64,000 bases of DNA from NCBI RefSeq assembly GCF_932294415.1, contig NC_065537.1, forward strand, positions 434,001 through 498,000. Direction: 5' to 3'. This DNA comes from Quercus robur (taxonomy: Eukaryota; Streptophyta; Magnoliopsida; Fagales; Fagaceae). Both the position numbers and the translations under genes were made by a program. Of this stretch, positions 7,436 through 48,577 are shown in pieces (positions within the stretch are counted from its first letter, which is position 1; the number at the start of each line of letters is the position of its first letter). Under the pieces are notes generated by a model. That model worked only from the letters and a program-made list of their open reading frames with translations, was not told the origin of the DNA and ran no database searches.

Positions 7436-8400
7436 TTTTCGTGTAGACCCACTTGTTTTGGAGGATGCCCCCACCTCTGGCTTTTTCCTGGTTTCCTATA
7501 ACACTAACTACCATATTGATTGTAATAAAAGGTGCTTATGGATTGTTTGATATGAAAGCTGGGGATGTTAAGCACTTGTTTTCCCGAAAACATATTCATT
7601 TCTTGATTTCCAAACCTGTCAATTCCCAAACGTAAAAAAATCATGTTCCGAAGTATGTAAATATGACAATTGGAGTTTGCTAGTTAAATTGTTTTGGAGC
7701 CAAGTAAATAGAGGGAAATTGAAAAAGATCCAAGGAAAAAATGCCCGATAGAGATGTCTAGAATTCATGTGCCCAAGGGCAGTACCGGCCGGAGAACAAT
7801 GATTGTGGTTTCCGGTCTAGAGCATCGAGAACAAGAGTAAACTCACCTCACTTCTTAGCTAAACACTCCCTAGTGGGTAACTCAATTATTATTTACATGA
7901 TTGGTTTTTTAATTACTTTTTTCCTTTTTCCTTTTTCTTTCAAATTGCAATAAGAAATGAGTTTTGATGATTTAATTTAAAGAAAATCAACAACCAAAAA
8001 ACGAATAAATGTCATTTTGAGGGTTATTCACTGCGCTTTTTTACGAACACTAACAAGAGAACTAAATTGAATAAAGTTGAAACTTGGAGGATTAAATTGA
8101 ATAAAAATGAAGATAGAGGGCTGAATTGAATTTTAAGAAAGTTAGAGGATGCAATTTATAATTTAGCCTTAAGTAAATAAATTAAACGGTAAATTAGCAA
8201 ATAAAGTGAGAAAAGTGTGAGAGTTAGACATATGGTTATTGAAGAGTTAATATTTTAGTCTAAATCTCACATTGAGAGAGAGAGAATCATTATTTATAAG
8301 TGTGGAGATTTATTGAGTTTGTGTAATGTAGGAGAAAATGGGTCTAACCCTCGCACATTGGGGAATGTGAAGAGGAGGTATGAAAATACCATTTAGGCAC
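7436..8400. other. Intergenic DNA with no recognised gene
   Basis: The open frame at 7453-7635 has no recognisable domain. Around 8230-8400 words such as CTCACATTG resemble ends of short LTR-type elements, but no paired repeats were found. Nothing further can be supported. Confidence 0.4.
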
Positions 8401-8404
8401 TATA

Positions 8405-8925
8405 GTTAAGGGAGTAAATGACCATTGACCCGCTAATTAAACTAGTCGTTGGGCCTCTTAACTCTTTTGAAACTCTTGATCACACTCATTAATTAAAACG
8501 TGACCGTTGACCCACTAATTGGACTAGCCATTAAACCTTTTTAACTCCTATGAAACTCCTCATCAGACTCATTAAAACAAATAACTCCAACATCTAATTA
8601 ATTGGGTAATTAATCTTGGGAGGCCCATGATCTAAAAAAATAAACAACCATTGACCTAATAATTGGAGTAGTCATTGCGGGTTCCAGTTAACTCAACTGG
8701 TAAAGTCTCTGATGGTTGTATAAAAGATCTGGGGTTCAATCCCCGCTTACACCAAAAACTGATTGGTATCTTGGTCTGATGATAAAAAGCAATTATCAAA
8801 AGTGAACGCCATAGGTTAAAACTCTCTTAAAAAAATTGGAGTAGCCATTGGGTCTCTTAACTTCTTTAAAACTCCTCAAATCCATTATAACATGTAACTC
8901 CAACATCTAAATAATTACGCTATTA
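8405..8925. repeat. Three-unit tandem repeat, unit about 110-125 bp, split by a SINE
   Basis: Three diverged units carry the same word order: CATTGACC, CTAATT, GGACTAGCCATT, CTCTTAACTC, AAACTC and, in the second and third units, AACTCCAACATCTAA. The third unit (from about 8647) is interrupted by the SINE at 8678-8833. Origin unknown; it may be part of a decayed mobile element. Confidence 0.6.
8678..8833 (+). mobile_element. tRNA-derived SINE, Au-SINE-like
   Basis: An internal Pol III promoter is visible: A box TTAACTCAACTGG and B box GGGGTTCAATCCC. It is followed by a body with TTGGTATCTTGGTCTGATGA and a tail with ACGCCATAGGTTAAAACTCT plus a short A run. It is flanked by the 17-bp target duplication AATTGGAGTAGYCATTG at 8661-8677 and 8834-8850, with one mismatch. 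The body resembles the Au-SINE family as remembered. It is inserted in the third unit of a tandem repeat. Confidence 0.9.
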
Positions 8926-10135
8926 GTATCAAGAGACCTAATGAACCTATAAACAGACTACCTCAGACACATTTACACTAATTTTTGTGCCTCAGTTCAA
9001 TATTTTTGAGATATTCAATAAAATATTATTGCAATTCATATTTCCACATTTAAACCCTCCCCCATATAAAAATGCAATATTTATATTGATACAATTTTAA
9101 AAGCTAAAGGTTCAATTTAGAACAAACCAAACTATAAGAAGTAATATGTAATAGTCTTTTTCACGGTTTAATTTGATACTTTTAAAATTATAGTTCTTAT
9201 AATTTATAACCATCCTTAAAATATTGTTTAATTTTTTAGGTAGTTAACCTAAACCAAGTATCAAAAGAACATTTTAAAAAATCATACAATAATGATGAAA
9301 ATCAAAGCTTCGTATCAATTGAATTTTTCAATAAGATTTGATTAATAAAATATTCAACATAGAACTTGATAATGGCACATTCACTATCTTAAACTAATGA
9401 CTAATTTTGCAAATGCGCGTGGGTTTTTACTTTTTAGTTGATTAATAAAAGGTGAGATGAGATTTAGGATAGGTTTTTACATTAAAAATTGTCAATATAT
9501 ATTTTTTAAAAATATATTTTCTTTCAAGTAATAACTAAAGAAAAACTATTTGAAATTGAAGATAAGAAGTAAAAAACAGAAACAGGGAAGGCAAGGGCAA
9601 TCCAAATAGTTGCAAGAAAGAGGCACAAAAAAAATAGTATATAATATAAGAATATGATGTAACCTAAGTAAGGGATAATGTTAAAAATGGTAGAGAAAAT
9701 CATCGTTAAAAACTAATGTAAAATAAAAAGTAGGGCCTGGCAAAGCATGGGGTATGGCCTTTTTAGCTGATTGGGTTTTTTTTTTGGGTAGGCATCATGG
9801 ATTAGATTAGATTAGATAGGCAACAAGCCAACAATATTATATACTATATACTATATAGTCTATACTTTTTTTTTTTTTTGAGCAAATAGTCTATAATAAT
9901 ATAAAAAGTCTCTAGAGGTAACACTAAGGCATGGAATGGACTTCATGTGTTTGCCTTTTGTCCCGTGTGAATCAATGACTAATTGGTCTATGTGACTAAC
10001 ATAACATCCTCTAATTGTCTTTCTATGCAAACACTTAACAATATCTGCTTCCTTTTGTTTTGATTCTTCCAACTTTGAAAAATCTTTTTAGGAAAAGACC
10101 AATTATAGAAAAGCTATGAAAATATAAAATAAAAT
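8926..10135. other. Intergenic DNA with no recognised gene
   Basis: AT-rich spacer. A short run of GATTA repeats (about 9801-9818) and a T tract (9868-9879) are the only simple features. The minus-strand open frame at 9860-10072 has no recognised domain. Confidence 0.45.
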
Positions 10136-11272
10136 GGATAATTACAGTAAACCCACCTGTGGTTAGGCTCATTTTCACTTTGCCTACCCGTGGTTTAAAA
10201 CTTTATACTTTGCTCACCTGAACTTCAATCTGTTACCCATCCGTTACCCACCTTTCCCTTTGCCATTAGAAAAACATATTTTTAGGGAAAAACAAACATA
10301 ACAAAGATCAAAAAATTAGGGTTTCTTATTGCTTAAGAACTTCTATGAGAACAAAGTGGGGTACTCTTAGTTGTTCCTGGTTCTATTGTGTACCCATAAG
10401 CGAATATCAGTGAAGGAAGTCAAAAGCGATTCAAATCCTCAACTGGGTCTTGTTCGCTGTTACCGTCTTCTTCATCTTTGTCCTCGTCGAATGTGTGTGA
10501 GCAGACCCAGCCAGTGGTTCTTGTGGATTCGCAAGAGACCGGTGTTCGACTCGTGCACACACTCATGGCTTGTGCCAAAGCAGTCCAAAATGAAAACTTG
10601 GAGCTCGCGGGTGCTCTCGTCAAGATCATCAATTTACTCACGGCATCTCAAGCTCGTGCTATGAGAAAAGTCGCTACTTATTTTGCCGAAGCTCTAGCTT
10701 TTCGAATTTACAGAATTTACCCACAAGATTGCCTCGATGCTTCCATGCTTGATATGTTGCAGATGCACTTTTATGAGACCTGTCCTCACCTCAAATTCGC
10801 TCGTTTCACAGCTAACCAAGCGATACTCCAGGCATTCACTACTACTAGCAGTGTACACGTTATCGATTTTGGGTTGAAGCAAGGGATGCAATGGCCAGCA
10901 CTAATACAAGCGCTTGCATTAAGGCCTAGTGGGCCACCGATTTTTCGATTAACCAGAATTGGCCCATCTCAATCGGAAAACACTGATGCTTTACAGCAAG
11001 TGGGTTTGAAGTTGACGCAATTGGCCGAAACTATTGGCATCCAGCCGAGGTTGTTACTGTGAACTCAGTTTTTAAGCAATAAAAAACTCTAACTTTTTTA
11101 TCTTTGTTATGTTTGTTTTTCCTTAAAAATATGTTTTTCTAACGACAAAGGGAGAGGTGGGTAACAAATGGGTAACGGATTGAAGTTCAAGTGGGCAAAG
11201 TGTAAAGTTTTAAACCACGGGTAGGCAAAGTGAAAACGGGCCTAAACACTGGTGGGTTTACTGTAATTATCC
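10136..11272 (+). mobile_element. TIR DNA transposon carrying a host gene fragment (Pack-TIR/Pack-MULE-like)
   Basis: The two ends are long inverted repeats of about 205 bp (about 10136-10340 and 11068-11272), roughly 90% alike by eye. The outermost bases are GGATAATTACAGTAAACCCA, and inner shared words include TTTTCACTTTGCCTACCCGT and ACAAACATAACAAAGAT. The interior is a DELLA gene fragment and no transposase is present. A 9-bp direct repeat TAAAATAAA lies at 10125-10133 and 11278-11286, which would fit a Mutator-type target duplication, but it is low complexity and not flush with both ends. Long TIRs plus captured coding DNA fit a non-autonomous Mutator-like (Pack-MULE) element; another TIR superfamily is possible. 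Confidence 0.85.
10385..11085 (+). pseudogene. Captured DELLA (GRAS family) gene fragment
   Basis: The frame opening at 10478 (194 residues) reads as the start of a DELLA GRAS domain: [20 protein letters not shown], the [19 protein letters not shown] leucine-rich region, [15 protein letters not shown], and the VHIID-type motif [20 protein letters not shown]. It ends at LAETIGIQ. A further piece in another frame just downstream (about 11049-11076) reads VVTVNSVFK, a later DELLA motif, so about 40 residues between them are missing. The N-terminal DELLA/TVHYNP gibberellin-sensing motifs and most of the GRAS C-terminus are absent. Intact DELLAs repress gibberellin responses. This copy sits wholly between transposon inverted repeats, so it is a transduplicate and not the working gene. 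Confidence 0.85.
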
Positions 11273-11393
11273 CTTAATAAAATAAAGCCAAGAAAGAGCG
11301 AATCTGGAAGAAACCCTAGTAAGTAAAAAAAATGACAAATAATAATAATAATAATGCCATACTAGGAATTTTAATAGGTTTTTATTGGTTCTT

Positions 11394-11556
11394 AATTTTT
11401 ATTTAAGAAAGTTTCAACCTATAGCGTCCACTTCTGATGATAGTTCTTTTATCATCAGATCAAGACACCAATCAGTTTTTGGTGTAGGGAGGATTGAATA
11501 GCAAATCTTTTATACAACCATTAAAAATTTTACCAATTGAATTAACTGAAACCCAC
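11394..11556 (-). mobile_element. tRNA-derived SINE, same family as 8678-8833, reverse orientation
   Basis: Read on the minus strand it has GGGTTTCAGTTAATTCAATT at the head, a decayed B box, then CACCAAAAACTGATTGGTGT, a TTGATCTGATGATAAAAGAA region and GGACGCTATAGGTTGAAACT at the tail. It is flanked by the 13-bp repeat TTTATTRGTTCTT at 11381-11393 and 11557-11569, with one mismatch. It is older than the plus-strand copy judging by its decayed promoter boxes. Confidence 0.85.
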
Positions 11557-11569
11557 TTTATTAGTTCTT

Positions 11570-12494
11570 TTTTAGATCTATTATAGTATTATTTTGCCAT
11601 TTATATTAATAATAATAATGTTATGTTGGGAATTTTAATAAATTTTTATTAGTTCTTATTTAGATCTATTATTGTAGTAATATTTTTCCATTTATATTAA
11701 TAATTAGTCAATGAAATATTTTGTAGATATTTTTGTGGTTTTAGAGTTATTTAAGAAAAACAAAAAGGAGAAAAAAAAAATCAAGAGGTTGATATTGTTT
11801 TTTTTTTGTATTTATAAGAAAAAGAAAAAAGAAAAAAGAAAAAAGAAAAAAAAGAAAAGAGGAGGCATAAAAATAGAGCGAAGAGAGTTTAAGAGCTAGA
11901 GTTTGAGAGCCCGCCGCCTGAGAGAGATTGTGAACTCATCTCTGAACTCAAAAACTGAAAGACACAGAAACAAAGGTAACAAAGGTAGGTTTGGGTACTA
12001 ATGACAAACTCTTTCTTGGTACAATACTAAGCTTTAACACACAAAAAACGCGGTTCCAAAATTACTTTCATTGAATCCAATTCTACTTTCTTGTCTCAAT
12101 TCTTTCGTTTTTTGGTCTTTCTTTTTTATTAATCTTTATTCAAAAGCGGAATCTTTTTCTTTTTGAGAGAAAGAGAGAGAGAGACACGCTCCACAAATCC
12201 CCGCAAAGAAAAGAAAAAAAGTGTAGACTTTGTAAAAACCGCCATTGTGAACAAGGTTACATTTTTCTCTCCGTTCAGACTTTCTGTTTGATAATATTGT
12301 ATATAAAATCCCAAAGGGAGAACTGGGTCTTTCTGGATTACTTAAACCACCGCTATTCTAAACCAGTTTTTTGTTTTTTGTTTTTTGGGTTGTGTGCTTT
12401 TAGAGTTTGTGTAATAATTAATTTTGTGTTATTGTGATTGTTGTTGTTGTTTGGTTTCGTTTGGAAGGAATTGGTATAAAAAGAGAGAGAGAAA
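11570..12494 (+). other. Upstream region and leader of CTP synthase
   Basis: AT-rich DNA, a purine-rich stretch (11755-11890), GA-rich runs (about 12163-12184 and 12481-12492) and no recognised domain. A TATA-like GGTATAAAAAG lies just before the start codon (12473-12483), too close to serve as a normal TATA box for this frame, so transcription probably starts well upstream, near 11900-12300. Confidence 0.4.
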
Positions 12495-15400
12495 ATGAAG
12501 TATATATTGGTGACGGGTGGTGTAGTAAGCGGTCTTGGCAAAGGGGTCACTGCTAGTAGCATTGGACTTCTGCTTATAGCTTGTGGACTTCGTGTAACTT
12601 CAATTAAAATTGGTATACCACTCTTTCATTCTTCATTTTCTCATTTACAGTCATTGCTTTGCATTTGGATTTCAAACAAAAATGGGATTTTTTATATATA
12701 TTAATTATAATGGAAATATGGTGATTTTTGCCCCTTTTCTTATTTAACTTTTGATTGCTAATGAAGTTTTTTAATTAGTGGATTGGCTTAACAACCATAT
12801 TAAGCAGCTATAAGCTTATGCATACCAAGACCATCTATTTCCAGTAATCCTTTTCAGAGGTCTATGGTGCCATTTCCATCAAATAGATATTTTGCTTATA
12901 ATATAAACCAATGTTTCTATTGTAAGGAATCAAATTCTTAATTTTTCATAGAAATGGCAATCCTTTGAGTGCCATTATCTTGTTAAAAGTGTTGATGCTT
13001 AATTTAAATTTACCATCTTGAATGCCAAATTCTTGAAAAAAAAGGTTATGCAGGTCAAGCATGCTTAATGCACTCTCTCTTTTACATGTCACTAAAAGGG
13101 TCATTTCTCATTGCTGGTCCAAACCTTAGTGAGGTATTGGGAGGGAGGTGGCTTGAAAAGGTTCAAACTATATATTTGCATTATTCTTATTATGTTCTAA
13201 ATTGGTTCCATACATGCAGATCCTTACCTGAACACCGATGCGGGGACCATGTCTCCTTTTGAGCATGGGGAGGTATTTGTCTTAGACGATGGCGGTGAGG
13301 TAAGTTAAATTCTGGATTATTTTCTGTTCATCTATTATCATACAGGGTGGGAAAGAACAAATGCATACCAAATATCAGCTTTTCCTAAATAGAATTATAA
13401 ATGCAAGCCAAAGAGTGTTCTGATTCTACTTTGAACCATACTTTCACTGGTTTTATGGGTTATCTGTGTTCATCTCCTATTGTTGAAAGCACATGCATTG
13501 ATGTTCTGATTACTATGCTTTCTCTAAGGAGGGTGTGTGTGTTTCATGTTTTCATTTTATAGAAAGAATATGACTGATTTTTTGTTTTGTTTTGAAGGTG
13601 GACCTTGACCTTGGAAACTATGAACGGTTTTTAGACGTTAAGTTAACCCGTGACAACAATATTACAACTGGAAAAATATATCAGGTATACTGAAATGAAT
13701 TCTCCCACTGTTTGTAGTGAAGTCTACCAATTTGAGTTAGTATGAAAAATCATGTGAGCTCAGTATCCCAGAGAATTATTGCTGTCTTTAATTCTTTGTC
13801 TTGATGTTTAACAGTCTGTTCTTGAGAAGGAGAGAAAAGGAGACTACCTTGGAAAGACTGTCCAGGTCTTTTTGACATTCAACTTCTTTCCTTGTACTAA
13901 GCTTTCCATTTATTATATGGATTCTGAATTTTGTTTTTCCCTTTGCTTTACTCTAGGTTGTTCCACACATTACAGATGCCATTCAAGAGTGGATAGAGCG
14001 TGTTGCAAAAATACCAGTGGATGGACAAGAAGGTCCAGCCGATGTTTGTGTCATTGAATTGGGTGGAACTATAGGTATGTTAAAATATTTTATGTGTATT
14101 AAGATGAGCCCTTCCCTTGTTATTATAAATATTAAAATAAATTTGTCTTGATGCAGGTGACATTGAATCTATGCCATTCATTGAGGCGCTTGGCCAATTT
14201 TCCTACCGTGTAGGTAAGATCAATGAGAGCATCATCTAATTTTGCAGGTTCTTGTAAGTAAAATTGTTTTGAGTTTATTTGAGCTGGTTTTACCCAAGTG
14301 TTTCTGGTATTAGGCCCTGGTAATTTCTGCTTAATTCACGTCAGCCTCGTCCCTGTTCTCAATGTTGTTGGTGAGCAGGTATATAATACATCATTTTTTA
14401 TTTGTGGGGCATACTAGTTCTAAGTTTTGTAAATGTGAATTGCACTTGAGTATAGAATCATTGATTTTGCTGTCTTATATTTTCCAAAAACAGCATGGCT
14501 TTAATTAATAGAGTGCTCAAAATTTTCAATTTATAGAAAACAAAACCTACCCAGCATAGTGTTCGGGGACTTAGAGGAATGGGGTTGACACCAAATATTC
14601 TTGCTTGTCGTAGTACAAAGGTTTCCTTCTTTCCCTCACTTTATTTTTCTTTCAGCAACTTAATTTGACTGCAGTAGTCTCAAAGATCCTTTCTTTCTTT
14701 CTTTTTTCTGTTGTTATGGTTTTGACAGGCACTTGATGAGAATGTTAAGGGGAAACTTGCTCAATTTTGCCATGTGCCGGTAAAATCACCTAGATACTTG
14801 CACATATGCATATGCGCGTGTGCTGGATGTTCTTTCCTTTGCATTTCTCTAAACCATTAGTTACAATATTATTCTAAGAAGAACTGACTTATTTACAGGC
14901 AGAAAATATTGTCACTCTCTATGATGTTCCAAACATATGGCACATTCCCTTGCTATTAAGAGTAAGTAATTTCTTTTATCAATTCTGAAACTGGTTGTGG
15001 TTATAATTGTTGCACGGCAAGAAATTGAAAATCTCTCTCACTCTCTGTCTCTCTCTCTCTCTAAAATAGGATCAGAAGGCACATGAAGCAATCCTGAAAG
15101 AGCTGAACCTTCTAGGGTTTGTCTTTCTAACTCACTCTATTTTTGCTGTGTAATCTGTTTCTTGCTTCTTTCACTGCATCTCTTTTATGGGATTAAAATT
15201 TTGTCAACAATGTTTAAGAGTCTATCTTGTGGCCCATTAACGTTTCTATAATTTCCAGTGTTGCTAGAGAGCCTGCTTTAAAGGAATGGACTGTGAGGAC
15301 AAAAGTTTCTGACACGTTACACAAGCCTGTGGGTCTCAAGCGTCTCATATATGCTTTGGATTGATTTATTGAATAATGTGAAGAATAATGCTCTAACTTC

Positions 15401-20493: not shown

Positions 20494-23400
20494 TTATTGG
20501 GGTCTGTTGTGGATATACGTAAGTTCCTGTTGTGGTAGTCATAAAGAGTTCGCCGATGGCCAATGCTAATATATGTGATGCCTGCTGCTCCAATCTGCTG
20601 GTATAAATGAGCCTGCAAACAGAAGCACAACCATTAAAATCTCAAGTTGAATTGAAGAGGGATCATGCCATCTTAACTCAACTCAACAACCTCTTGGCTG
20701 CCTGAAATATTAGCAGCCTAGTAGTCTTGACTTCAAATGTACACACAAGTTTGATTTGCATGTGTGGAGTACAAGCAAACAGCAATTCCGCCACCATAAT
20801 TTCTTCCATACTTCCAGTGGATCCATATCTCCTTGTCTAGTATTTACACATATAGTAAAAAACTTGGAATCTCCTAAAAAATCACTTAACTAGTAGTCCA
20901 CAGGATCCATATTTACTGGACAGGAAAGGTATATTACTTTAAACAAAGACATCTTTCAATTCCCACATAGGGAGAATAAAGCAATGTGGTGCATTCCTTA
21001 ATCTAAAAATAAAACTTGCATTGTAAAATAGAAGATTAAAAATCCATGATACCTCATTGGCTTCATCTAAAGCACTGGTAGATTCATCCAATAGAACCAA
21101 TTTTGGTTTTGAAAGCAAAAGACGTGCAAAAGCAAGTCGTTGCTGCTCTCCAAGTGAAAGAACACTAGACCATTCACATGTTGAATCCAGACTACCAAAA
21201 CGAGGCAATATATAGCCAAGACGAACATCCTCTAAGGCCTGTATTAGATCATCGTTTGTGGGCTTAATAGGTTTCTCAATTTCATTTCCTGAGATTTGTG
21301 CACGCATCAAGAAAGGCAGTAAACCTGAAACAAATTTGATTACACTCAAAACATCAAACTTGAGAATGCTTAAACAAAAAGGACTTGATACATGGCAAAG
21401 ATGAGTAGCCAAAGGATATAAAATCACTCAATATAATAATTAGATAAATCAACATGGCATGTTTTTTGTCAATTAGTGTATAAGCTAATATAGAAAGCAT
21501 AGAGGTATCTGAACTCTTAAGGTCTTTGTTAGTACATCAATGTATGATGTGTTTGATATACATTGTTGGTCCACTTTCTAATAGCTTAAGCTTTTAGGAC
21601 AAGCGGTTTAAAACAGAGCATCGGAGCCTTGGCTATCAACGAAGTCTTCAGATTGAATCCTAATAATCGAAGTAACCGCTGTTTGTTCTAATTATTTTTC
21701 AGTGTTTATGACTCTGTGGAGGGCCCACATTTAGTTCATGGTGTTGGATGTGCTTGCACATTTAGGAGATGAATTATAATGTATAAGCTTAAAATGCATT
21801 GTTGAACACATTTCTTATCAAGGTAAGCTTTTTGTACAATCATTGTCTAACACTCTTTGATCATAATCCAATATCCTATAGCAAAGATCCATCAATTACC
21901 ATTTACCATATATATTTAACTAAGAATTTTTTATTTCCACTTTCTTGTTCAAATGTCCTTCAAATTACAAACGAATTGAGCAGAAAATGCTAGAGATATT
22001 ATCTACTATAGTTTTTAACATTTGAAATTAAAAAATAAAAAAATAATTACATACCAGTTGGTTTAGCACTATCTGAGTTGGCAACTGCATCTTCAGCCCA
22101 CATAGGATAAAGCAATTGCTGACGAAGTGTTCCCAAAACCATATACGGTCTTTGAGGAAGGAAAAATATGCCTCTAGAATTTCTATTTATGTGTCTTTTA
22201 AGTTCCCCATGTGTATCATGTATTGTATTTGCTTCAGGAAGATCCCCATCTGAAGAAATTGATGACTGAGGATATTGCCCATCATCTACATAGAATGTGA
22301 CTCTTCCTCTTCCAGTACTCCAAAGACCAGCCAAAGCTCTTAACAAGGAAGTCTTACCACTCCCGCTAGGCCCTGTTACCTGTTAGCACAGGTACATACC
22401 AGTATATGTCTTCAACACCCATAAGCTTGCAGAGGTTAGTCCCATCCCCCGCCCCCAACCCCCCCCCCCCCCCCCCCCCCCCAAAAATAAAAAAATAAAA
22501 TAAAACAAACCACTCACCAGCAAATGATCCTTCTCATTGATCACCAATGATAAGTCTCTAACCAGTGTAGCTTTGCTTGGAGTCCGTAGGGTCAAATTCT
22601 CTATATCCAGTAACTTGTCTTTGGGCATTGATCCATTAGACTCCAGTACAGGTGAACTTCTAACACTATTGTATACAAGACATATCTCTTCTGAGGGGTC
22701 AGAAAGACTTTTAGAGCTGCTGCTATCTAAAATGTCATCAAATTCACCTGCATATGTGGAGGGCCAAGTCTGTTATCATTAGGTAAATAAGCATTCAAAT
22801 TCAAAGATCTACGGCTACCCCATAGAGGATTCCCAATTTCACCAAGTCATGCGAAATGGATCGCACATTTGAGAATACCTTGAATCATTGATAAATTTAT
22901 GAATGTGTGACTTTTTTTTTTTCAGATAATAGCTGAAAAAAAAAAGTGTATAGGAAAAAAAAAATCTCACACGGTGACATTGACATGCTTTTATCCCATT
23001 ACACTAGATATCCATGGTGAACTCCAGGAACCCAAAGGGATAAGAATAAGCACAGCAAGCTTTCCAGACATGGTATATCTATAGCAGAGTAAAAAATGCA
23101 CCCATGTTTCCCCAAATCTTGTATCTTATCCCTTTTTCATTGAGATTTCCAAGCACTATGGGCCACATGGGTAGCTCACTTAACAGTGTTGTAATTGCTC
23201 AAAGATGTAATGGAGCCTAATTATAAAAGGAAAAAAAAGGACCAAAGTACAGCACCTAGTCGATCAATGACAGCTGAAAATGCGCTGATAGACTGAAACT
23301 GGTAAACAATGAGAGAGAAGTCTCCAAGGATATGATTGAAAGCAGATACTGACTGATTAATGACACCAAACTCAATTTTTCCTGAAAAGTACATGGGCGC

Positions 23401-26400
23401 AACAACAGCAGCAGGAAGAATTTGAATGAGGTAACGATAGCCATTGGTGAAGAAATCTAGATTTCTAGAAGATATCAACAATTGCTGCAAAGAAAAACAA
23501 TAAAAGTATTCCATCCTTTAGAGTGGACCACAGGTATCATTTAAATAATAGGACTTCAACATGATAATAAAAACTTGAATTAGTTGATAATCAATGAGAA
23601 GCTAGATGAGAACCAATAAAAAGGAAAGTAGGGAGAGTAAAATGTTTTGGCCCTGATTAGTGTCCATTTGGAAAAAAAGCAAAATGCTTTTTGCTTTTTG
23701 TCTATGTTTTAAAAAAAAAAAAAAAATTGAAATTAAGCCAACTTTTATCTTTTTGTCTCACATTTAGCAATAAGCTACCGAAAACCACAGGATACCAAAT
23801 GGACACTTAATGTTAAAGGTATTAATATCAAAGGAAATATCAATATCAATTTGATAATCTATGAAAATTAATAGCAAAAATCATAGATGCAAATATGGAA
23901 AACTTTATAAATAAAATGCATATGTGGTTAGTATATGAGTAGGGTACTTAACAGTACACATTGTCAAATAAATTATATCCAGCAATAAAGTTATGTGAAA
24001 TGAGTTCACAAATATTCAAAGTATCACAACATGATAACACACTACAAGTTTAATATTAGCTGCCTACAACCAGATAAGAGTTTTTGATCTCATTGAGTGA
24101 GGGTCACGAAAGTGTAACATGGTTTCTAACAATACTTATACTCTGTCACTAAATGTTCATAAAAGAAGAGAAATTCTCATCAAGAAATTCAATAAATAAT
24201 GTTGTTTTTATGGCAATATTGGGCATATAGTCACATTATGTATATACAAACATAGGGGAGTTGTGTGTGTATGGGCTGGAAAAGTCTATAGTTGTCGCTT
24301 CAAAGAGAAGCACAAATATGAGTTCTGTCTGCAAAGAGCTTTGCCGGCTGTAAACACTACCTAGTAAGATTGAGATCAAGTTCTCCAAAAATTAAGTTTC
24401 CCTCCGTGGGGAAGAAAGGCAATCAATACCAACTTAACAGTTCCATAAGATTAAGGCCAAAATTTGACCACAAAAAATTAACCAAAAGCTAGGTCACTTG
24501 AATAAAGCTGACCGTACCACTTGTATAGATGTTGAAGTCAACCAAAATGACCCTAACCTCAGTGGCGTTTTCTGTTATAAGAACTATCCTTTTTCTTTCT
24601 TTTTTTGGATAGGTAATCAAAGAAATATTATTAATGAAAATAGAAAGTAAAAATACAAGTTGTTCATGATGATGAACAACAAGAAAAGGATAAAACAAAC
24701 AACAAAAAAGAGGGAAATCAAGAAACTAATCTCAGAGAAAACAAAAACTCAAAGAGAGAAGAACAATCAATAAAACCCCAACAACAAGACCACTCAAAAA
24801 GACTACACTGGCACAAAACCTTTAACTTTTCCAAAGTCTTCCCAGTGTCCTCAAAGGAATGACATTTTCGTTCCAGCCAAGCAATCCACATCAAGCAACC
24901 TAGAATCAAATTCCAAATATTTGAAGTATGATTCACAAGCCATTGATGCCAACAAAATAAAAGTCTCACTACCAATCTTGGTATAACCCAATGAATACTG
25001 AAAGCCTGAAGCATAAAAGTCTAAAAGGTATATGTAACAGGACAATGAAGAAGAAGGTGGTCCACCAACTCCCCATCACAACGACACATACAACACCGAT
25101 TTGCCAAAGAGCGACCCCTAAGCATGAGATTATCCAAAGTAAAAATTTAACCATGACCAGCTGTCCACAAAAAGAAAGCCACTCGCTTAGGAACCTTTGG
25201 TTTCCCAACACCCTTCAAAGGAAACAAAGAATCCTGAGTTCCTCGAATCGCATGGTAGAAAGACCTAGTGTCAAACTATCCTTGATGTTGAAGTTAACAT
25301 CAATGATATCTTCAATCATGGAACTTCCTAGAGAATAATAGCATTCCCCCTCCCACAACCTCATGCAAGAATATATGATGTAAATCATGTAAGCATATAT
25401 TCAAGGTGTGAGACAAGCAGTTGTCAAATCAAAAGCATATGACTGCAATATAGCAAAACTTGGTTTGGAATTTGGGGCTAGTGGAAGTACATTCACATGA
25501 ACAATAAATAAAATCATCCGCATAAGACAATGAAATTTAACGTCATTTGGCAAACTCCATGTTTACATATACAACAACGCCAACCAAACTCCACTATCAA
25601 AAATATATATTACAACCACACTCAACCAAATCTCACAAACACAAACTAACTCAAAACCCCACATAAACCCAAACTAATTCAAATCTCAATATCTCACTCA
25701 CCCAAAAATAACTCTCAATACCAGCAAACTCACAAAAGACCCTCACAATTATAAAGCCCCAATACATTCAATTGGGCTCTCCCACTCAAACAATAGACAA
25801 ACTCTAAACTCACACATGCATTCATCTTTCAACCCCAAAAGAACTACCAAACTACTCTTCAAAGAAACCCACTCATGCTCTTTTAAGAAAAATCTCCTAT
25901 TCCTATATGAGAGAACCATATGAGCCAAAGCCACCAAAACCCTCAATATTAATGCTTATATCTAAGGCTCTAACTCCAATTCGTTGGTGAATGAGGAATA
26001 CAAAATTACTTTTTTTGACTGGTAACACAAATTACTTTTGCTATGGAATAAACTTTCCTTCCACTAAAAAGAAAACCCAAATAGGTAACCAGGCCAAAAT
26101 AGGAATTTGAGGCCATTTTTAATTATAGGAAAATGGAAACAGCATAAGGAAAAGAGTGAAAACATCCATACAGTCAAATTTTCAAAAGCACTTCTGAAGC
26201 GCTGCAGCAGAAGTTGCATTTCGTTATCTTCGCCACCATAAAAAGCAATTGATTCAGCATTTTCTCTAACGCGTACAAGTCCATAACGAAAATCTGCTTC
26301 TTTCTTCTCTTGCAAGAAATTTAGAGTCACCAAACCCTGAAATTAGTAGTGAAACAGTCTCCAGTCAGTCAAACTGGTATCTTCTTTATGGGAAAAATTC

Positions 26401-28268
26401 TACTGTATGTCGAAAACATAGGGTACTCACCTTTCCAAGAAAAACACTTAAAGCTGTTCCACCAATCGAATACACAAGAAGAATGATAAACAGTGGAGGA
26501 TAGATGCCATACAAGATGTTACTAAATGATATCAAGTCTACAGCAGAATTGAATAGTATCAAAGAGAAAGAAAGGGCTGTCCCAGTGAAGGAACTTAGAT
26601 CATCAACAATCCGCTGATCTGGGTTGTCAATAATTGATTGTGATTGAATTTTGTAAAATGTCTGATTCTTCAGATAGCGTTCCATGTAATATCTAGTCAT
26701 CCAAGACCTCCATCTCAAAGCTAGAGTGTCTCTTGCATAATCTCTCAATACAAAAAACTGTAAAACAACAACATATAATGGGACAATTATATAAATATGA
26801 TTAGATCAATGGTAAGGAAGGCAACGGCATTAACATAGCAAGATACTGCACACGAATTCTATGGTGGCAAAGAAAATGGATAGAAGTGGCTGCTCATATA
26901 TAGGAAAACCCCAAGGACCAATCGGTTCATTAATATTTTCAAACCGGTACTTCTATGAATATGTTTGATATATCCATTTATGTGTCATTCTCATCTCCTT
27001 TTCTAATAAAAAATTTTTACTTACCAAAAAAATATGTTTGATATATGTGGAATTGGATACTTATCTCTAATATGCAGCCAAACAAAAACTGCAAAATAAA
27101 CAAATCCCATGTTTCCATGATCTAATGGCAATTTCAAGTTCTATGTCTGTACTTGAATAATTTATGCAGATGGGTGTTAGAATTCATAAAGAGATCACTT
27201 AGAAAAAATAAGACTTTACTTTAAAATAATTGAGGAAGGAAGAGTAGATCACAAATTTGTTCAAAACAAGTAGTTATGATCAAAGCTCTATTTTTTCTTT
27301 TGTGTGGGGTGTTTGTAATGCATTCAAATAGCTAGAACAGAGGGCTGAATTGATGGGGTTTCCTAAGTAATGAAAAATGTCAAGTTAATTGAACTGTGTT
27401 TGACATTAAAAGTTAGGGGGAGTGTTTTTCCTTCTCACTCACATAACATTAAGTAATAGGCCAATAGGGTTTTGTTGACAAGTTAAGGTAAAACCAATCT
27501 CATGTTAAATTATGAACTATACTAAACAACATTGCAGGAAATCGTTTTTCAAAAGAAGACAGGTAGGTATTAGCAGAGGAAATGGAAATGGAAATGGAAT
27601 ACCTAAGAAAGTGGAGCAAAATTGTGCTCACCGGAATTCCACCAGCAAAGGCACCCAGGTAATACAGAAGTTGCTTCGTGAATTGTTCTTGGTCCTTGTC
27701 TAAAAAAGTTAACAAAAAACAGTTATAGTAATAATAGAGAAGAGAAGAAATGGTAGTTAAGTTAGAAAGTAGTAGTGAAAGTACTGGCAAGAGCATTGTA
27801 GAAGTCACGGCCGAGGAAGTTGAAGCCGACACTGATGCCTGTGGTTGCTAGAGTGAGAGCAAACACAGCCGCCAACTGCCATCTGGCTTGGACTTTGTCT
27901 TCTTCACAATACCAATATGGGGCTGCCACCTTCCAGAATCTCCTCACAAGCGTTTTGAGATCAGGGCCCTTTCTATTATTGTTGTTATCCACTTCTTCTT
28001 TTTCATTTGACTCTGGGGTTGAGGTTGAAGAAGAGTCATTGGATGATGATGATCTGGTGGCAAAACTGGTCCTCCTCCTACTTCTGGGTCGACTCCTAAC
28101 ATTGGTAACACTGGACATAATTGTTGATGAATGTCTAGAGAAACAGAAACCAACTTTTACTACTTTACTTTGCTTTTGGTTTTGGTATCGGTTTGTGCAA
28201 CTGCAACACATGGTTGACAGACTGTGTGCCTGTTGTGTCTGTACAACTCCAACTCCAACTCCCATCAT
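20427..28268 (-). CDS. ABCD2: Plastid-type ABC half-transporter, subfamily D member 2
   Basis: Nine exons on the minus strand join to 761 residues: 28268-27785, 27699-27632, 26757-26431, 26336-26172, 23484-23256, 22747-22518, 22379-22055, 21324-21053, 20612-20427. Arabidopsis ABCD2 (At1g54350) is about 706. The first 110 or so residues are Ser/Arg-rich, as expected of a chloroplast transit peptide. A transmembrane domain of the peroxisomal ABCD type follows (about 120-440, with GRDFYNALA and [10 protein letters not shown]). The nucleotide-binding domain has Walker A GPSGSGKT (about 504-511), a signature LSLGEQQ in place of LSGGQ (665-671), Walker B LVLLDE (685-690) and an H-loop His in ISIGHRR (719). 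All key residues are present. Half-transporters work as dimers; the substrate is not known from sequence. The upstream of two adjacent ATGs was taken as start; a later Met is possible. Intron 4 carries a LINE fragment and a MITE. Confidence 0.93.
22459..22482. repeat. C24 homopolymer in ABCD2 intron 6
   Basis: Twenty-four consecutive C on the plus strand, preceded by further C-rich DNA and followed by A-rich DNA. On the sense strand it is a G run inside a 138-bp intron, so it could form a G-quadruplex in the transcript. Runs this long are also prone to sequencing and assembly error. Confidence 0.95.
23660..23806. mobile_element. Tourist-like MITE (TTA target) in ABCD2 intron 4
   Basis: About 147 bp with ends GTGTCCATTTGG and CCAAATGGACAC in inverted orientation, flanked on both sides by TTA (23657-23659 and 23807-23809). 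Three-base TTA/TAA duplications are typical of PIF/Harbinger MITEs. No coding capacity. Confidence 0.75.
24592..25273 (-). mobile_element. 5'-truncated L1-type LINE in ABCD2 intron 4
   Basis: Minus-strand translation gives the end of a plant LINE ORF2: a zinc-binding reverse-transcriptase tail ([34 protein letters not shown]) and the closing part with [12 protein letters not shown] and LFEWS. Several frame breaks and an in-frame stop show decay. The 3' end is an A-rich tail (T-rich on the plus strand at 24592-24607). The 10-bp target duplication AACTATCCTT lies at 24582-24591 and 25274-25283. Only about the last 0.7 kb of the element was copied. Confidence 0.85.
25284..26171. other. Remainder of ABCD2 intron 4
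   Basis: Contains a C- and A-rich stretch (about 25560-25950) that looks repetitive. The small open frames here match nothing recognised. No boundary repeats were found. Confidence 0.35.
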
Positions 28269-29472
28269 TTTTCTTTTCTTTTTTCTTTTTCTTTTCTGGG
28301 TAAAACCTACAAAATTATAAGCAACTCATTTTAGCCATTCTTTGTTCTTCAACCAATACATTGTAAGATTGTCCCCTAGGCTAGGCTAGAAAGTACAAAC
28401 TCTCTCTCTCTCCTTCTTCCGGTTGCTTTCTCTGAGTTCTAGTTTGACTTTTTAAACTTTTTCTCTTCTGTTTATCTATCAACCAATTATCTTTATCTGC
28501 TACTACATGGGGGAAGTCTTGTCTTAACTCTTTGCGATCCTAGATATGCCACGCCACCCTCACATCTTCTCTACATTTTCAGCCTCTCTTTTTTTCCATC
28601 TATACAAATTTTCCCTACTTTGATTTGCTGGCCTGTCATTATTAAAATACATAAGATAACCTTTTAATTCTTGAAGGCCAAAAAAATGTATGATATTAGC
28701 TTAAAAAACCATCTTTTTATTATTATTATTATTTAATTTATTTTTATTACTATTTATAGATCTTATTACACTTTTTGTACTACTTATGGGCTCATTATAT
28801 TATTTCAGCTACTTTTTAACCTTATCTATAATACTTTTAGCAAAAAAAATTCAATTTCAATTAAATAAATTGTTCCTAAACATATTCTAAGAGAAGAAGA
28901 AAAAAAAAAGGATTACTACTGAGTGCAAGTAAAATGGAAAGATTACTGTAAAATAGTCTAAATAACTTTTGGAGACCTCACATTGATTAAACTGGTGCAA
29001 AAAAATTTTACAGATGGAAAGAAACTACACTTTCCTCCTCAATTATATGATTTAATTGCCAACCAATGAATTCAAAAATTTTACTTTATCCATCCAAAGA
29101 CTAATTGTAATTGCTTTTTAATACATGAGTTTAATACATTGACATTATAATAATATTGCTATGGATTTCTTTTCAACACATAATTTATACGTACAAACTG
29201 TAACTCTTTCGAACTGAAATCATTAAAGGAAAATCCAAGTTATAGAAAATCCAACTCAGCCCCAACCACATATTCACTAAATTTAATTAACACATCATAA
29301 TAAAAACTAAATTACGTCAATAAAGGCGTTTGGGTTCATCACTAAGGCTTACAGCAAAATCACACAATACAGAGTGCTAATAGAACAAGTCATTCATGTA
29401 CATTATCTGAATTACATTTGAGCAACACCAAAAAGAAAAAAGAAAAAAAGGGAGCCCTTCTTTTAAGTGACC
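28269..29472. other. Spacer between HUA1 3' end and ABCD2 start
   Basis: Both genes are on the minus strand, so this 1.2 kb holds the ABCD2 promoter and leader (near 28269-28600, with CT runs at 28401-28416) and the HUA1 3' UTR (near 29330-29472). AT-rich, with no open frame of note. Confidence 0.5.
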
Positions 29473-31641: not shown

Positions 31642-34600
31642 GGGTTGTGTGGGGAGGGGGCGAACAATAGTAACAATTTCCAATTTACCGTTGGCTGAGC
31701 CAATCTAGGGTCAATAGTCTGATAAATAGAAGCTGCTGGATTGACAACTCCAATGTTCAGATTGGTTGCTGGGGAGGCAACAATGGGAAGGCCTATTGCA
31801 GCGGCAGGTGGATTAATCGCTGCACAAAAATCTCAGTGAAACTTTGAATCACAAGTATTTAAATCAACAGTTGAATTAAGATAAATCATATATGCATCTG
31901 AAATCAGAAATAATGAATTTCAGCTTTGTAGGCATACCATGCCGGTCAGGATGGTTGTAGCGGCAAGTGGCACCATACTTGCAACTGATATACAAAAAAA
32001 TGAAAGAAAGTTAAGAACTTTTGCTATTCTATACAATCTTAAGTCAATTGGGCATATATATCCAAAAATAATTTTTTTTAAAATTGACCACAAATAGGCA
32101 AATAGTCACCTGCCAGTTTTGAGGTAGAATGGACAATCAGCTTCACCCTGTTAGAAGCAAACGAAATGTGAGTAATGGAAAACCAGATTTTACTACATTG
32201 CAGAACCAATGAAACGAATAAAAAAAGGAAAAGGTAAGAGTGTCAGCTAGCATTTTGATGGCAGAAAAATTCCCCCCTCTATGGGAGGCCATGAAGCAAA
32301 AAGAACAGAACACCAAATTGACACCCAAAAAAGCACGAGGAGAGAAGGGGAGGCAGAAAGGCATAAAATATGTCCAGAAATATACTCAGAGGTGAAGCTA
32401 ATAAACCATAATATCAAACTTCACCCAGAAATTAATATAAATTCACAAATTTAATTGAACATTACATATAAATAATGGCAGAATGAATTAAGCAATCCCT
32501 TAATAGTCAAAATTACATTACCGGTCTAACAGGAAGTCCCTTGGAGTTATATATTAATGCTGGGGTGTATGAAGCAAGACTATTAGCTAGTATTGCATCT
32601 GCAGTTGCTAGTGCCTTAATTGCTAATTCAGTCTGTTCACCATTACCATTCTCTTGCCCAAGCAAAGGTATCTGAATATCTTTTGGGTGATTGAACTTGC
32701 AGGTTGGACCAAATTTACAGTTTCCAGTCTTCATATAGAACTGTTTAACATTATACAGTATAAAAGAAAGCCAAATTAACAACACAAATAGACAACAATG
32801 CTCAAGAAGAAAAGAAGAGTTAAATATCTAACAGCACATGGGGGCTCAGATGGCCTCTCAGGTAATGCAGGCATGCCAGCATTCTCTAAAGCAACCTGAA
32901 ACCAGGCAATGCATTACATTACTATAAATAAGGGGAATCAATCCACAAAACAGCTAGATGTGGCAAATTTTGAGAGAATAGAACCTACCTCAGTCACCAA
33001 TTTATCTTTTGGATGATTAAACTTACACCTCAATCCAAACTTGCATCTTTGAGTTTTCAGAAAATACTACACATGGATGGGAAATGAAATAGTTACTTCA
33101 AATGATCAAGTGCATATAAAGAAAAAAGAGAACAATAGCTTAATGTACTACTCACTGGACAATCTGGCATCCCTGGTCTCTCAGGAAGGGATTCAGTTGT
33201 TGTAGCAAGAGGTGGAACCTGAATAAACAAGATATCAAATTATAGTTTCACTCTTTCAGAAATGATCAGCAAATAGGTAGAAACGTATAATCCAAAAATG
33301 ATGTGCCAACAAGGAAACAAAAGTAGACACACAAACAGATTTCTAATTACAACAACCAAGCCTTATTCCCAAAAAATTTGGGTTAGCTATGGATTCTCAA
33401 CAAACTAGTCAGGCTTCGTGATGTAGGAAGCATTAGCACCAAATTTATTTAAGATTTTCTTTCAAAATTTGAAATTATTTTTGAATTTGAATTTTGAATC
33501 TAGTTTTTAATGTTTAGGGTTTTAAGAGATTTGATTAAGCATTTTCCATATTGGTGTACTCCCTAAACCCTATTAAAATAGTGCTCTTGTAATTATGAAA
33601 GCGGTACTATTTGAATAAGAATTATATTATTATGATGAGTTGAGAATATGTCTCTTCCTTTGTTCTCTTTGTTTGGTGGTAATGTCAAACGTAGATTCTA
33701 GGTGGTAGAGCTTGTTATGTTGTTCCATTTTGCTACAATTTATTCTCTATTTTCCTACTGTGTTAAGAATCATTCTTTTCATCCATTCTATTCTATCCGA
33801 ATTCATACTCTCTATTACTTCCTTAATTGACAAGTCATTTTCACTACTTCTATTAATATTATTTTTGGCCTTCCTCTACCTCTTTTCATACCCACAACTT
33901 GAATCAACTCATTTTGTCATTGTTGCATTAATCACTCTCCTATGAACATAACCAAACAATCTCAAATAACTCTCCTTTGTCCTTTCATCAATAAGGGCCA
34001 CCCCTATCTTTTAGCAAAAATTTCTCATTTCGAATCCTATCTTTTCTTCTCAATAGGCCATAACCATAGGGCATAGTTAGCCTTAAAGCAGTCTAACAAA
34101 ATTTTCCTTTTAACATGCCAAGAGCCTTATAGCACAGTGCCTATGCGTGGTCTTGTTTATGAGGTGAATATAGGTCGAATCCCCCCTTGTGTAACAACTA
34201 GATTATATTAAAAAATAAATAAATAAAACCCTTTTAACTTAATAGGTATTCTACAATCACCTCAAATACTCCTAATGTAATTCTAAACTTCATCTACCTT
34301 GCTCTAATCTTATACTATGATTCATATCCTCTTTAATCTTTCCATTTTTTATGAATTATTAAATCCAAGATATCAAAAGTTTTCGCATGTTGGTATCTCT
34401 TTGTTTCTACTTTTACCAAACTTGCATTCCATGTACTTTGTTCTAGTCCTACTTTACCAAAAGCTTTTGGATCCTAAAGTATCTCGCCAAATTTCTAATT
34501 TTCATTTTTTTAAGGGCAAAACTTAGATACAATACCTTATATACTGTTCCTTAGGTTCCCCTTTTAAAATTTAGTCATCTGTCTAATTTAAATACTAAAG

Positions 34601-37600
34601 TAAATGGGGCTAAGAATAGTGTCTTTCTATTTTCTTCTTCTTCTTTTCCTCCTTGGCCCATGAGAAAACCCCATTCCCCCATGGCTTCACACACAATCTC
34701 TAAAGAAGAAAACCCCTTGGCTTCAAACTCTCAGATTTCTAACTGAAATTAAGCAAAGAATGACAAAGGGGCTGGAAGTCCTTGCTGGTGAGGATCTTCT
34801 CTATTAATCCCAATATTTTCATGAGAAGATAGGTCAATTTGTTCGTATGCTTGGTTGGTTCACAAGTTCGATCTGTTTGTCTCCATTAATCCGATTGTAT
34901 TCATTGGATCTCATCCTATTCATGCAAAAGATCAATTTTGCCCTCTTAGCTGCTAAGGTTCCAAAGATCTGTTCTTTGATTCATGTATTAGATAACCGTG
35001 ATTCTTTAGTTTGCTTTTAGTTAAATACTCAAAGATCAAATAATGGATCTAATGGATTGTTTATTTTACTGAATGGTATTCTTCTTCTAGAGTGTGTGTT
35101 TGAGAGGAATGAAGCTATGGTGAATGGGGTTTTCTCATGGGCCAAAGGGAGAGGGAGAAAAGGAAAAAGAAAAAAAAAAAGGTGCTTAATGCCGTTTGCT
35201 TTAATTTTTTAATTAGATAGATGGCTAAATTCTAAACGGGGAACCTAAGGAACAATATACAAGGAACTGTATCTAAGTTTTGCCCTTTTTTTATATGTAG
35301 TGCCTAGGCACTACAAGAGGTGCTAGAACCACTAGGTATATTTCTAATTGATATTAACTCCACGTCTATTTTGCATCTATTAAAACTATATTATCTGAAA
35401 AAACATACCTCGAGGGACTTTCTCTTGAATAGATTTAGTAAGCTCATCCATCACTAGTGCAAAAGATTTGAATATTTCCCTTGTTCTCCCTTGTTCTTGT
35501 AAATAGGTATTAGAGTACTTCTCCTCCACTCACTAGGCCATTTGCTATCGCTTAAGATCTTATTGAAAAGGTTTGTCAACAAACATACAGCCACATCACC
35601 AAAGCACTTCTAATTCAAGTGGCACTTCAACCGATCCCATGGCTTTTGTAATTTTCATCCTCCTCAATGCATCCTTTACCTCATTCATTCTAATTCTTTG
35701 AAAATACATAATCGTTTTTATCTACAATTCATTCTAATTCTTCAACCAAAAAAAAAAAAAAAACCTACGGTTTTTATCTTTATTTGGGTTACTCAATTCA
35801 ACATAAAAGACAAATCTTTTTATATACCTTCCACTCAAAAGTTTTTAAAATAACTTTCCCATCTCTCTTCAAAGTTCTATGTTTTTACTCTCTCTCTCTC
35901 TCTCTCTCTCATTATCATCTTTAAACAAGTGTGCTGTGCGGGCCTGTGTTGAATCCATATTGAGTGTTAACTCTAGGATCTTGAATTTATAAGTTATGTC
36001 AAGGAGCCCCAATTGCATAACTAGTCCTTTTGGGGTGTAACTAGATATGTGGCTACTGCTGTCCTTGGGTCGGCACAAATTGTATCAGAACAAACCTGGT
36101 AACACCATGTGGCTTAAGGCACTACAACACAACATGGGCCTTGGCAAGAATGTCAAGAATTTAAGTGGGGGAGATTGGGGTACCCCAACTTGTGCAAATT
36201 GGATTGGATTGGATTGTTTGAGTGCGTATTGTGTGGGGGTGTGCTAAGTCTCACATTGGTGTTTACTAAATGAATTTTAGGTTTATAAGTGATTATGAGG
36301 AGCCTTGATTGTAACTTAACTAGCCCTCTTGGGGTGTAAGTGCAAATGTGGCTAGCGCTTTCCTTAAGTCATTACATTAAGTCTCTTGTCTTCATTTTCC
36401 TTGACTTAGTATGTTTATAAATATTCTTTTCTCCTTCATTCGTCCCCAACTTGCTATATAATTCATTGTATGCCTTACATTCATCCTCTTGAAAAACCCT
36501 TTTTTGCTTTCCTCTTCACCACTTCTTAATTTTCATAACATCACCCCTACATCGAGGATGGCACCTATAACTCTCTCTCTAAACCTAATTGTTGCTTGAA
36601 ACTTTGCATTCAACCGTGAAGTCTCCTTACTTGATCGCCTAGGTCCTTTAGAATCTACAAGTACATCCTCAACTATTCTTTTAATACAATTAGCCATTTC
36701 ATTCTACATCTTATCAACATCTTTCTCCAAATTCTTGAGTTTCTTATTTCTACTCCTTCAAACCTCACCACCTAATCCTTAGATTTTTTTTGTCTAATAC
36801 TTCTTCTTTTTCATCTCTCACCAGCTACCACCTTACAATCTTTACAACATCTACTATTCGCTAACTTGTGCTTTTCGACCAAGTGCTTAATGTTTTGTTC
36901 CTTAATTGCTAAAAAGTACAAAGAACTTAGGCCATGAATGTTGCATGCATAAAATTCAATATGGGCAACACTCCTGCAACTTGACATTTCTAGAAGACAT
37001 AATTTCCCTCATAATTTGCAAGCAGTAAATTCCTGATTCCATTATGCAAATAATTAGAGGATTTGATCTATTGCTTCAGACTCACAAATATGGATTGAAA
37101 GATTACTAGTAGCTCAAACGTTGGCCATGACTAATACACATTACCGTGTCACAAACACAATTGGCAAAGAAAGAATTCATATAAACTAGAAGAATCCATG
37201 AAACAATATACAACAGTATACTAGTACTGCATGCACCACATACAGAAGAAATGCATCAGAGAGGCATCAGCATATCATTCTTTTAATTAAATATACTATG
37301 TTTTTTCAGGAATTCTATTCTAATTATTTTTTTAAAGTAAAAAAGTAAAATCCTTACCCTTCATAGAGAACATGCCTACAAAACTGTCATGGACTTAAAG
37401 TTAATTTGTGCAGAATAGATGTAATTACAAATGCACACTTTTCCATAATCAATATTCTAAGCTTGAGATGTTAGAAGTAAATTTAATGTTTTTTACAACT
37501 TTTATTTTCATCAGCTCCTTCTCTAAAAGATTTTTCGTCTTCTACATTATTCCTTCTCTGATACTCTACATCAATATCTTCCATATGAGGTTCTAATATG

Positions 37601-48138: not shown

Positions 48139-48286
48139 AGAAACCTAAGTGCAAACTTGTTACGCAAAGGGACACCAGCACCTTCAAAGAGGGACGACAG
48201 TTCTACAGTCGAGGAGAGGTTTTGCAGACCAACCTTCACCAGTGACAGAGAAACATTGGCCCAAAAAACTTAAAAGGATCCAATAA

Positions 48287-48577
48287 ATTAAGTAATCATA
48301 GAAATATTACAAATTTTATTACATAGATAGGTCATACAAATTGTTGTGTCATCAATTACAATGGTTAATGGGTATTAAGAGAGAGAGAGAGAGAATGTCA
48401 GTTTTAAGCTAATTGCGCACACGTGTGTGAGTGTGTGTATAAAGCAAATTTGATTTCAAATTTGAATATAATTTTGCGCATGTGTTTCATTTAATTTTTA
48501 AATTGTTCATGCCAATTTTTTTTTGAGATAATTACAATATGCTGCTAACACCATAACTTTAATTCTTTCCCCCCTAG
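48287..48577. other. Spacer between LINE and fold-back MITE
   Basis: AT-rich, with a short (GA)n run near 48379-48394 and a (TG)n-like run near 48421-48440. No gene seen. Confidence 0.5.

What the first reader, a model, noticed from the sequence alone, without database searches (positions are those of the whole stretch)
10136..11272. A TIR transposon has captured a DELLA gene fragment
Inverted repeats of about 205 bp, roughly 90% alike, enclose part of a DELLA growth-repressor gene and no transposase. This is the form of a Pack-TIR/Pack-MULE element, here carrying a piece of a master gibberellin-signalling gene. I know of no description of this particular capture.
Basis: partly seen in the sequence, partly recalled or inferred. 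Interest (0 to 1): 0.8.

Follow-up and report, generated by a model that had tools for sequence, protein, structure and literature searches.

The report
Jumping-gene shell carrying broken DELLA fragment
A small plant transposon-like element carries a damaged piece of a DELLA growth-control gene between its two mirror-image ends; this is a well-known kind of event in plants, and this copy looks more like a decayed passenger than a working gene.

Summary
Inverted repeats at 10136-10341 and 11067-11272 (206 bp, 19 mismatches) enclose 725 bp that encode part of a DELLA protein's GRAS region (Pfam GRAS, E 8e-53; best solved relatives are DELLA proteins). The piece lacks the DELLA motif region and the C-terminal half, and both its ends lie within about 30 bp of the repeats. 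It is damaged by a deletion of about 23 codons with a frameshift near 11045 and, in the less well matched linker, by a stop at 10397-10399. Pfam finds no other GRAS or DELLA sequence within 1.9 kb on either side, so it is unlikely to be a DELLA locus in place. Long repeats, an imperfect 9-bp target duplication (7 of 9), a 1.14 kb size and no transposase fit a Pack-MULE by published criteria. Most likely this is an old non-autonomous Mutator-like element with a dead transduplicate. Over 3,000 Pack-MULEs are reported in rice alone. My searches found no report of a DELLA capture, in an open-licence library. Ordinary: a new member of a known kind.

The parts
10126..10134 (.). left copy of candidate 9-bp target site duplication, AAAATAAAA
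   Evidence: 7 of 9 match to 11274-11282; pairs of 9-mers from the two flanks reach 7 of 9 in 0.4% of 83,517 cases, but three boundaries and five lengths were compared
10136..10341 (+). left terminal inverted repeat, begins GGATAATTACAGTAAACCCACC
   Evidence: 206 bp, 19 mismatches to the other arm; outermost 22 bases identical in both arms
10367..11073 (+). captured DELLA-gene fragment (linker, LHRI, VHIID, start of LHRII), corresponding to DELLA protein 1 residues about 157-411; outer edges approximate, the right one overlaps the inner end of the right repeat by 7 bp
   Evidence: Pfam GRAS 8e-53; phmmer alignments. The linker part (residues 157-191) is weakly matched: it adds about 4 bits for DELLA protein 1 and is not matched in RGA. 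Region names recalled
10397..10399 (+). stop codon TAA in frame with the GRAS part, inside the linker part of the cargo
   Evidence: three-frame translation; sequence on both sides aligns to DELLA protein 1 from residue 157, weakly
10400..11062 (+). open frame of 220 codons holding the GRAS part; first in-frame ATG at 10565 (165 aa to the stop)
11040..11050 (+). junction of an internal deletion of about 23 codons with a change of frame; the gene resumes as [10 protein letters not shown] in another frame (exact junction not fixed)
   Evidence: translation; without gaps, the 10 residues fall on DELLA protein 1 residues 402-411 (7 of 10 identical) when 23 X stand for residues 379-401
11067..11272 (-). 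right terminal inverted repeat (one more G at 11273 on the minus strand gives GGGATAATT)
11274..11282 (.). right copy of candidate target site duplication, TTAATAAAA

Best explanation
An old, non-autonomous Mutator-like TIR element (Pack-MULE type) of about 1.14 kb that copied roughly 0.77 kb of the coding region of a host DELLA gene (255 residues by comparison with DELLA protein 1) between its inverted repeats and inserted 1.2 kb upstream of a CTP synthase gene. Shown: the repeats, the DELLA-derived cargo cut at both ends, no match to the rest of the gene in the near flanks, and the frameshifting deletion. Probable: the in-frame stop in the linker. Inferred: capture by template switching during repair or replication, movement by a transposase supplied in trans, decay after capture, and lack of protein function. 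If the cargo does anything today, the likeliest route is as a weak source of small RNA with similarity to the parent gene; nothing here shows that it does.
For: Inverted repeats of 206-209 bp at 90-91% with identical outer 22 bases. Candidate 9-bp target duplication with 2 mismatches at 10135/11273. These meet working criteria in Ferguson and Jiang 2012 (PMC3310237, passages seen): repeats of 100 bp or more at 80% or more, and a 9-11 bp duplication with at most 2 mismatches; the same paper reports tomato Pack-MULEs as most abundant at 1000-1200 bp. Cargo is DELLA/GRAS. No GRAS or DELLA match at E up to 0.1 in the six frames of 1.9 kb on each side, 12 of 12 translations, and no second copy of the cargo DNA in the window beyond matches of 20 and 15 bp. 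Decay: a frameshifting deletion and a probable stop; 22 of the 127 residues shared by DELLA protein 1 and RGA are changed in the cargo, 9 of the 22 explicable by a single C>T or G>A; 16 of 20 arm differences are transitions.
Against: No second copy of the terminus in the window and no host genome to look in, so membership in a repeat family is unproven. The target duplication is imperfect and lies in A/T-rich DNA; an 11-bp comparison at 10136/11272 gives 8 of 11, and by eye an asymmetric boundary (10136 left, 11273 right) gives 8 of 10, so the boundary is not certain. The 220-codon frame has no internal stop: under unconstrained change at 5.2, 10.4 and 15% per site, 29, 7 and 3% of 2000 simulations each stay open, so some constraint, or a short time since capture, is not excluded. 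The cargo keeps a CpG ratio of 0.81 against 0.36 for the window, which does not point to long heavy methylation of the cargo. 13 of the 22 changed residues are not explained by one C>T or G>A, and some may have been in the parent gene.
Confidence: 0.86

Rival explanations
1. The cargo is a protein-coding novelty: a truncated GRAS protein without the DELLA motif, started at the ATG at 10565 (165 aa) and able to interfere with gibberellin signalling. (Not exclusive of the capture itself.)
For: The GRAS part is open for 220 codons, with an in-frame ATG; at 10% change per site only 7% of simulations stay open. A piece without the DELLA motif would not be recognised by the gibberellin receptor (established knowledge, recalled).
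Against: The frame ends at a frameshifting deletion, so most of LHRII and all of PFYRE and SAW are missing (region names recalled; last match at residue 411 of 593). 22 of 127 residues shared by two DELLA proteins are changed. At 5% change per site an open frame is not rare without constraint (29%). No expression data.
Confidence: 0.05
2. It is the relic of a normal or tandem-duplicated DELLA gene into which two solo MULE ends, or a hairpin, happened to insert.
For: The DELLA piece is collinear with DELLA proteins apart from one deletion.
Against: The gene piece stops at a matched pair of repeats on both sides; Pfam finds nothing of the N-terminal DELLA region or of the C-terminal half of GRAS in the 1.9 kb flanks.
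Confidence: 0.06
3. It is a TIR element of another superfamily (for example PIF/Harbinger or hAT) with unusually long repeats, still a Pack-TYPE element.
For: Passages of PMC8903248 report Pack-TYPE elements in all main plant TIR superfamilies; there is no perfect 9-bp duplication.
Against: Repeats over 200 bp and a near 9-bp duplication point to MULE; the 3-bp and 8-bp comparisons at the three boundaries tried match at most 2 of 3 and 5 of 8.
Confidence: 0.08

Closest known systems
Pack-MULEs of plants (e.g. tomato PM-ZIBP in PMC3310237, passages seen)
   Same: Long inverted repeats, candidate 9-bp target duplication, about 1 kb, coding fragment of a host gene inside, no transposase seen. PM-ZIBP-1 is 944 bp with 87% TIR identity and the A/T-only duplication TTTTAAATT.
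   Different: Here the cargo is a DELLA gene fragment; copy number and parent gene are unknown; the duplication is imperfect.
Pack-TIR elements of animals (PMC8277862, passages seen)
   Same: Same layout: TIR ends with foreign filler, explained there by gap filling or by template switching with transposition.
   Different: Animal hosts; the paper leaves open whether its models apply to plant Pack-MULEs.
Transduplicated gene fragments in grapevine class II elements (PMC2528002, passages seen)
   Same: Captured host gene pieces in DNA transposons of a eudicot.
   Different: Their examples in the passages are other genes, such as a putative cellulose synthase; the word gibberellin does not occur in the text, and the one word beginning with GRAS was not among the passages shown.
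DELLA proteins RGA (9lum) and DELLA protein 1 (9x5g)
   Same: The cargo is identical at 122 of 172 (DELLA protein 1) and 117 of 173 (RGA) positions over the GRAS part.
   Different: The cargo has neither the DELLA region nor the C-terminal half and is broken.

Membership tests
Pack-MULE | Long terminal inverted repeats (100 bp or more, 80% or more alike) | tested here: met
   206-209 bp, 90-91%
Pack-MULE | 9-11 bp target site duplication with at most 2 mismatches | tested here: met
   AAAATAAAA / TTAATAAAA, 7 of 9, in A/T-rich flanks and after comparing three boundaries and five lengths, so weak
Pack-MULE | Carries a gene or gene fragment of the host | tested here: met
   GRAS/DELLA; that it came from this host is inferred
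Pack-MULE | No transposase inside | tested here: met
   The only stop-to-stop frame of 110 aa or more between the repeats is the GRAS piece; shorter frames not scanned
Pack-MULE | TIR homology to a known or autonomous MULE | not testable with these tools
   No host genome held; no plant repeat library; exact terminus patterns not found in viral or prokaryote contigs, where they were not expected
Pack-MULE | An intact parent gene elsewhere in the genome, without TIRs | not testable with these tools
   No host genome held
DELLA gene (functional) | N-terminal DELLA/TVHYNP region plus a full GRAS domain in one frame | tested here: not met
   GRAS profile positions 1-175 of 374 only; match starts at residue about 157 and ends at 411 of 593; frameshift and stop; no DELLA or GRAS match in the flanks

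The most novel reading that the evidence does not exclude
The element is transcribed from its TIRs or from the neighbouring CTP synthase region and its DELLA sequence gives rise to small RNAs or a short GRAS protein that tunes the parent DELLA gene, so that a transposon carries a heritable modifier of gibberellin response.
Probability: 0.04. Interest if true: 0.65.

Novelty: new member of a known kind. Interest (0 to 1): 0.2.

Why it matters
As an ordinary Pack-MULE it is one more example of how plant TIR elements scatter gene pieces, here of a key gibberellin regulator. It also warns annotators that the 220-codon GRAS frame should not be called a DELLA gene. It would matter more only if transcripts or small RNAs linked it to the parent DELLA gene.

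Tried and rejected
Exact TIR terminus patterns in viral contigs and in the prokaryote genome collection gave 0 matches; the cargo protein in viral contigs gave 2 stretches that matched a pattern, 0 confirmed. This is as expected for a plant element and says nothing about it.

Weak TIR matches elsewhere in the window: 35 bp at 80% at 24544-24578 (E 0.003, without the outer 5 bases) and 22 bp at 91% at 63123-63144 (E 0.003, inner A-rich part of the arm). The first was followed up: of 5 inverted repeats of 25 bp or more listed in 20500-28500, none has an arm covering it; one 26-bp, 73% arm (24568-24593) overlaps its edge. Taken as chance or a remote relic. The second was not followed up.

Rfam and tRNA scans of the window found nothing. 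TIR sequence strings in papers: one hit, a sheep genetics paper, seen as a listing only.

Literature. Pack-MULE with DELLA: 17 papers listed, 2 opened (PMC8758071 and PMC8211194, passages; 'della' was part of an author's name in one and a mention of DELLA proteins in the other). Pack-TIR: 1 paper, opened for passages. GRAS with Pack-MULE: 3, listing and abstract starts only. Pack-MULEs: 90 held, 30 listed, 4 of them opened for passages (PMC8277862, PMC3310237, PMC8903248, PMC13317346). DELLA with transduplication: 5, listing and abstract starts only. DELLA pseudogene or truncated DELLA phrases: 36 held, 20 listed, none opened. Pack-TYPE with GRAS: 0. Captured gene fragments, GRAS family, transposable element, Mutator (3 of 4 terms): 12 listed, 2 opened for passages (PMC2528002, PMC13317346). 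Mutator-like with 'DELLA gene' and captured: 0. Only open-licence papers are held and most were seen as listings, so this is weak evidence of absence.

Age: the arms differ by K2P 0.104 (209 columns), but arms of a MULE need not be identical at insertion, so no date is given.

Full report
Observation. The window holds an inverted repeat with arms 10133-10341 and 11067-11275, 209 bp, 90% complementary, 725 bp apart. Counted from the shared terminus GGATAATTACAGTAAACCCACC the arms are 206 bp with 19 mismatches. It is the longest of the 5 gapless inverted repeats of 60 bp or more listed in the 64 kb, and far beyond chance: 288 bits against at most 42.8 in 100 shuffles of the 2.5 kb region (the shuffle moves non-overlapping two-base blocks and keeps composition only roughly).

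Ends and target site. The right arm ends in GGGATAATT and the left in TGGATAATT. With the boundary at 10135/11273 the flanking 9-mers are AAAATAAAA and TTAATAAAA, 7 of 9 alike. Of 83,517 pairs of 9-mers from the two flanks 0.4% reach this, but I compared three boundaries and five lengths, and the flanks are A/T-rich, so this is supportive and not proof. Other boundaries do about as well (8 of 11 at 10136/11272; 8 of 10 by eye for an asymmetric boundary). Working criteria for plant MULEs accept 9-11 bp duplications with up to 2 mismatches and repeats of at least 100 bp and 80% identity (PMC3310237, passages).

Cargo. The frame 10400-11062 is open for 220 codons and matches Pfam GRAS (8e-53, profile positions 1-175 of 374). 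Its best solved relatives are DELLA protein 1 (1.1e-79) and RGA (2.4e-73), ahead of SCARECROW (1.5e-28) (no species is given in the output). Reading further upstream in the same frame, across a TAA at 10397-10399, the match to DELLA protein 1 begins at residue 157, that is, after the N-terminal DELLA region (placement of that region recalled). This linker match is weak: it adds about 4 bits (274.0 against 270.1 for 9x5g) and is not seen with RGA, so the stop lies in gene-derived sequence probably, not certainly. At the other end the frame leaves the protein near residue 378. The gene resumes in another frame as [10 protein letters not shown], which falls without gaps on residues 402-411 (7 of 10 identical) when 23 residues are left blank; RGA needs two more. 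So the cargo is one stretch of a DELLA gene, residues about 157-411, with an internal frameshifting deletion. Its left end lies about 26 bp inside the left repeat and its right end overlaps the inner edge of the right repeat by 7 bp.

Not a DELLA locus in place. The six frames of 8201-10135 and 11274-13208, read with stops as X, contain no GRAS or DELLA match at E up to 0.1; the only hit in 12 translations is the CTP synthase N-terminus. The cargo DNA has no second copy in the window; the only other matches are 20 and 15 bp long.

Decay. Over the GRAS part the cargo is identical to DELLA protein 1 at 122 of 172 and to RGA at 117 of 173 positions, while these two share 127 of 172. Of the 127 positions where the two agree, the cargo differs at 22 (173 columns from DSQETG on, one gap column set aside, the earlier columns left out). 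Nine of these 22 can come from one C>T or G>A change, 13 cannot. Differences between the arms are 16 transitions and 4 transversions. Against simple decay: the 220-codon frame has no stop, which unconstrained change at 5.2, 10.4 and 15% per site leaves so in 29, 7 and 3% of 2000 simulations each, and the cargo keeps a high CpG ratio, 0.81 against 0.36 for the window, 0.32 for the left and 0.69 for the right repeat. The parent's DNA is needed for a real test of selection.

How it most likely works. Non-autonomous TIR elements move with a transposase made elsewhere (stated in PMC8903248, passages). Capture of filler by gap repair or template switching is the model discussed for animals in PMC8277862 (passages), which leaves its use for plant Pack-MULEs open. 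Here both steps are inferred. A review (PMC13317346, passages) says that captured fragments are usually non-functional pseudogenes and that over 3,000 Pack-MULEs in rice carry fragments of more than 1,000 genes; it also describes captured sequences as siRNA sources that can silence donor genes. That is the main functional route I would entertain for this copy, at low probability.

Setting. The element lies on the 5' side of a CTP synthase gene on the same strand (first exon in 12480-12704, likely ATG at 12495), 1.2 kb away.

What could not be tested. Other copies of the repeat, an autonomous partner, the parent DELLA gene, the empty site, and expression.

Verdict. It is a new member of a well-known kind, with broken cargo. 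My searches found no report of a DELLA or GRAS capture by such an element, in a library limited to open-licence papers and mostly seen as listings.

Noticed in passing
8679-8830 (+) and about 11403-11560 (-): Two copies of a tRNA-derived SINE-like repeat in opposite orientation (stretches GTTAACTCAACTGGTAAAG and GGGTTCAATCCC in the first, then a shared body), the second starting about 130 bp outside the element's right end. The SINE reading is from recall.
   Followed up: partly
42185-48144 (-): A LINE-like non-LTR retrotransposon in four consecutive open frames: DUF4283/zinc-knuckle ORF1, endonuclease, reverse transcriptase, and zf-RVT/RNase H-like part.
   Followed up: partly
49141-49752 (+): Fragment of a retrotransposon reverse transcriptase/RNase H, LTR type by its RT_RNaseH_2 match.
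   Followed up: no
34512-34689 and 35110-35287: Second-longest listed inverted repeat of the window, 178 bp at 72%, 420 bp apart; perhaps an old TIR element or MITE.
   Followed up: no
48577-48653 and 48687-48763: Inverted repeat of 77 bp, 84%, with a 33-bp loop, about 430 bp upstream of the LINE ORF1 frame.
   Followed up: no
24544-24578 (-) and 63123-63144 (+): Short stretches like parts of the TIR (35 bp at 80% and 22 bp at 91%, each E 0.003), the first without a partner repeat nearby.
   Followed up: partly
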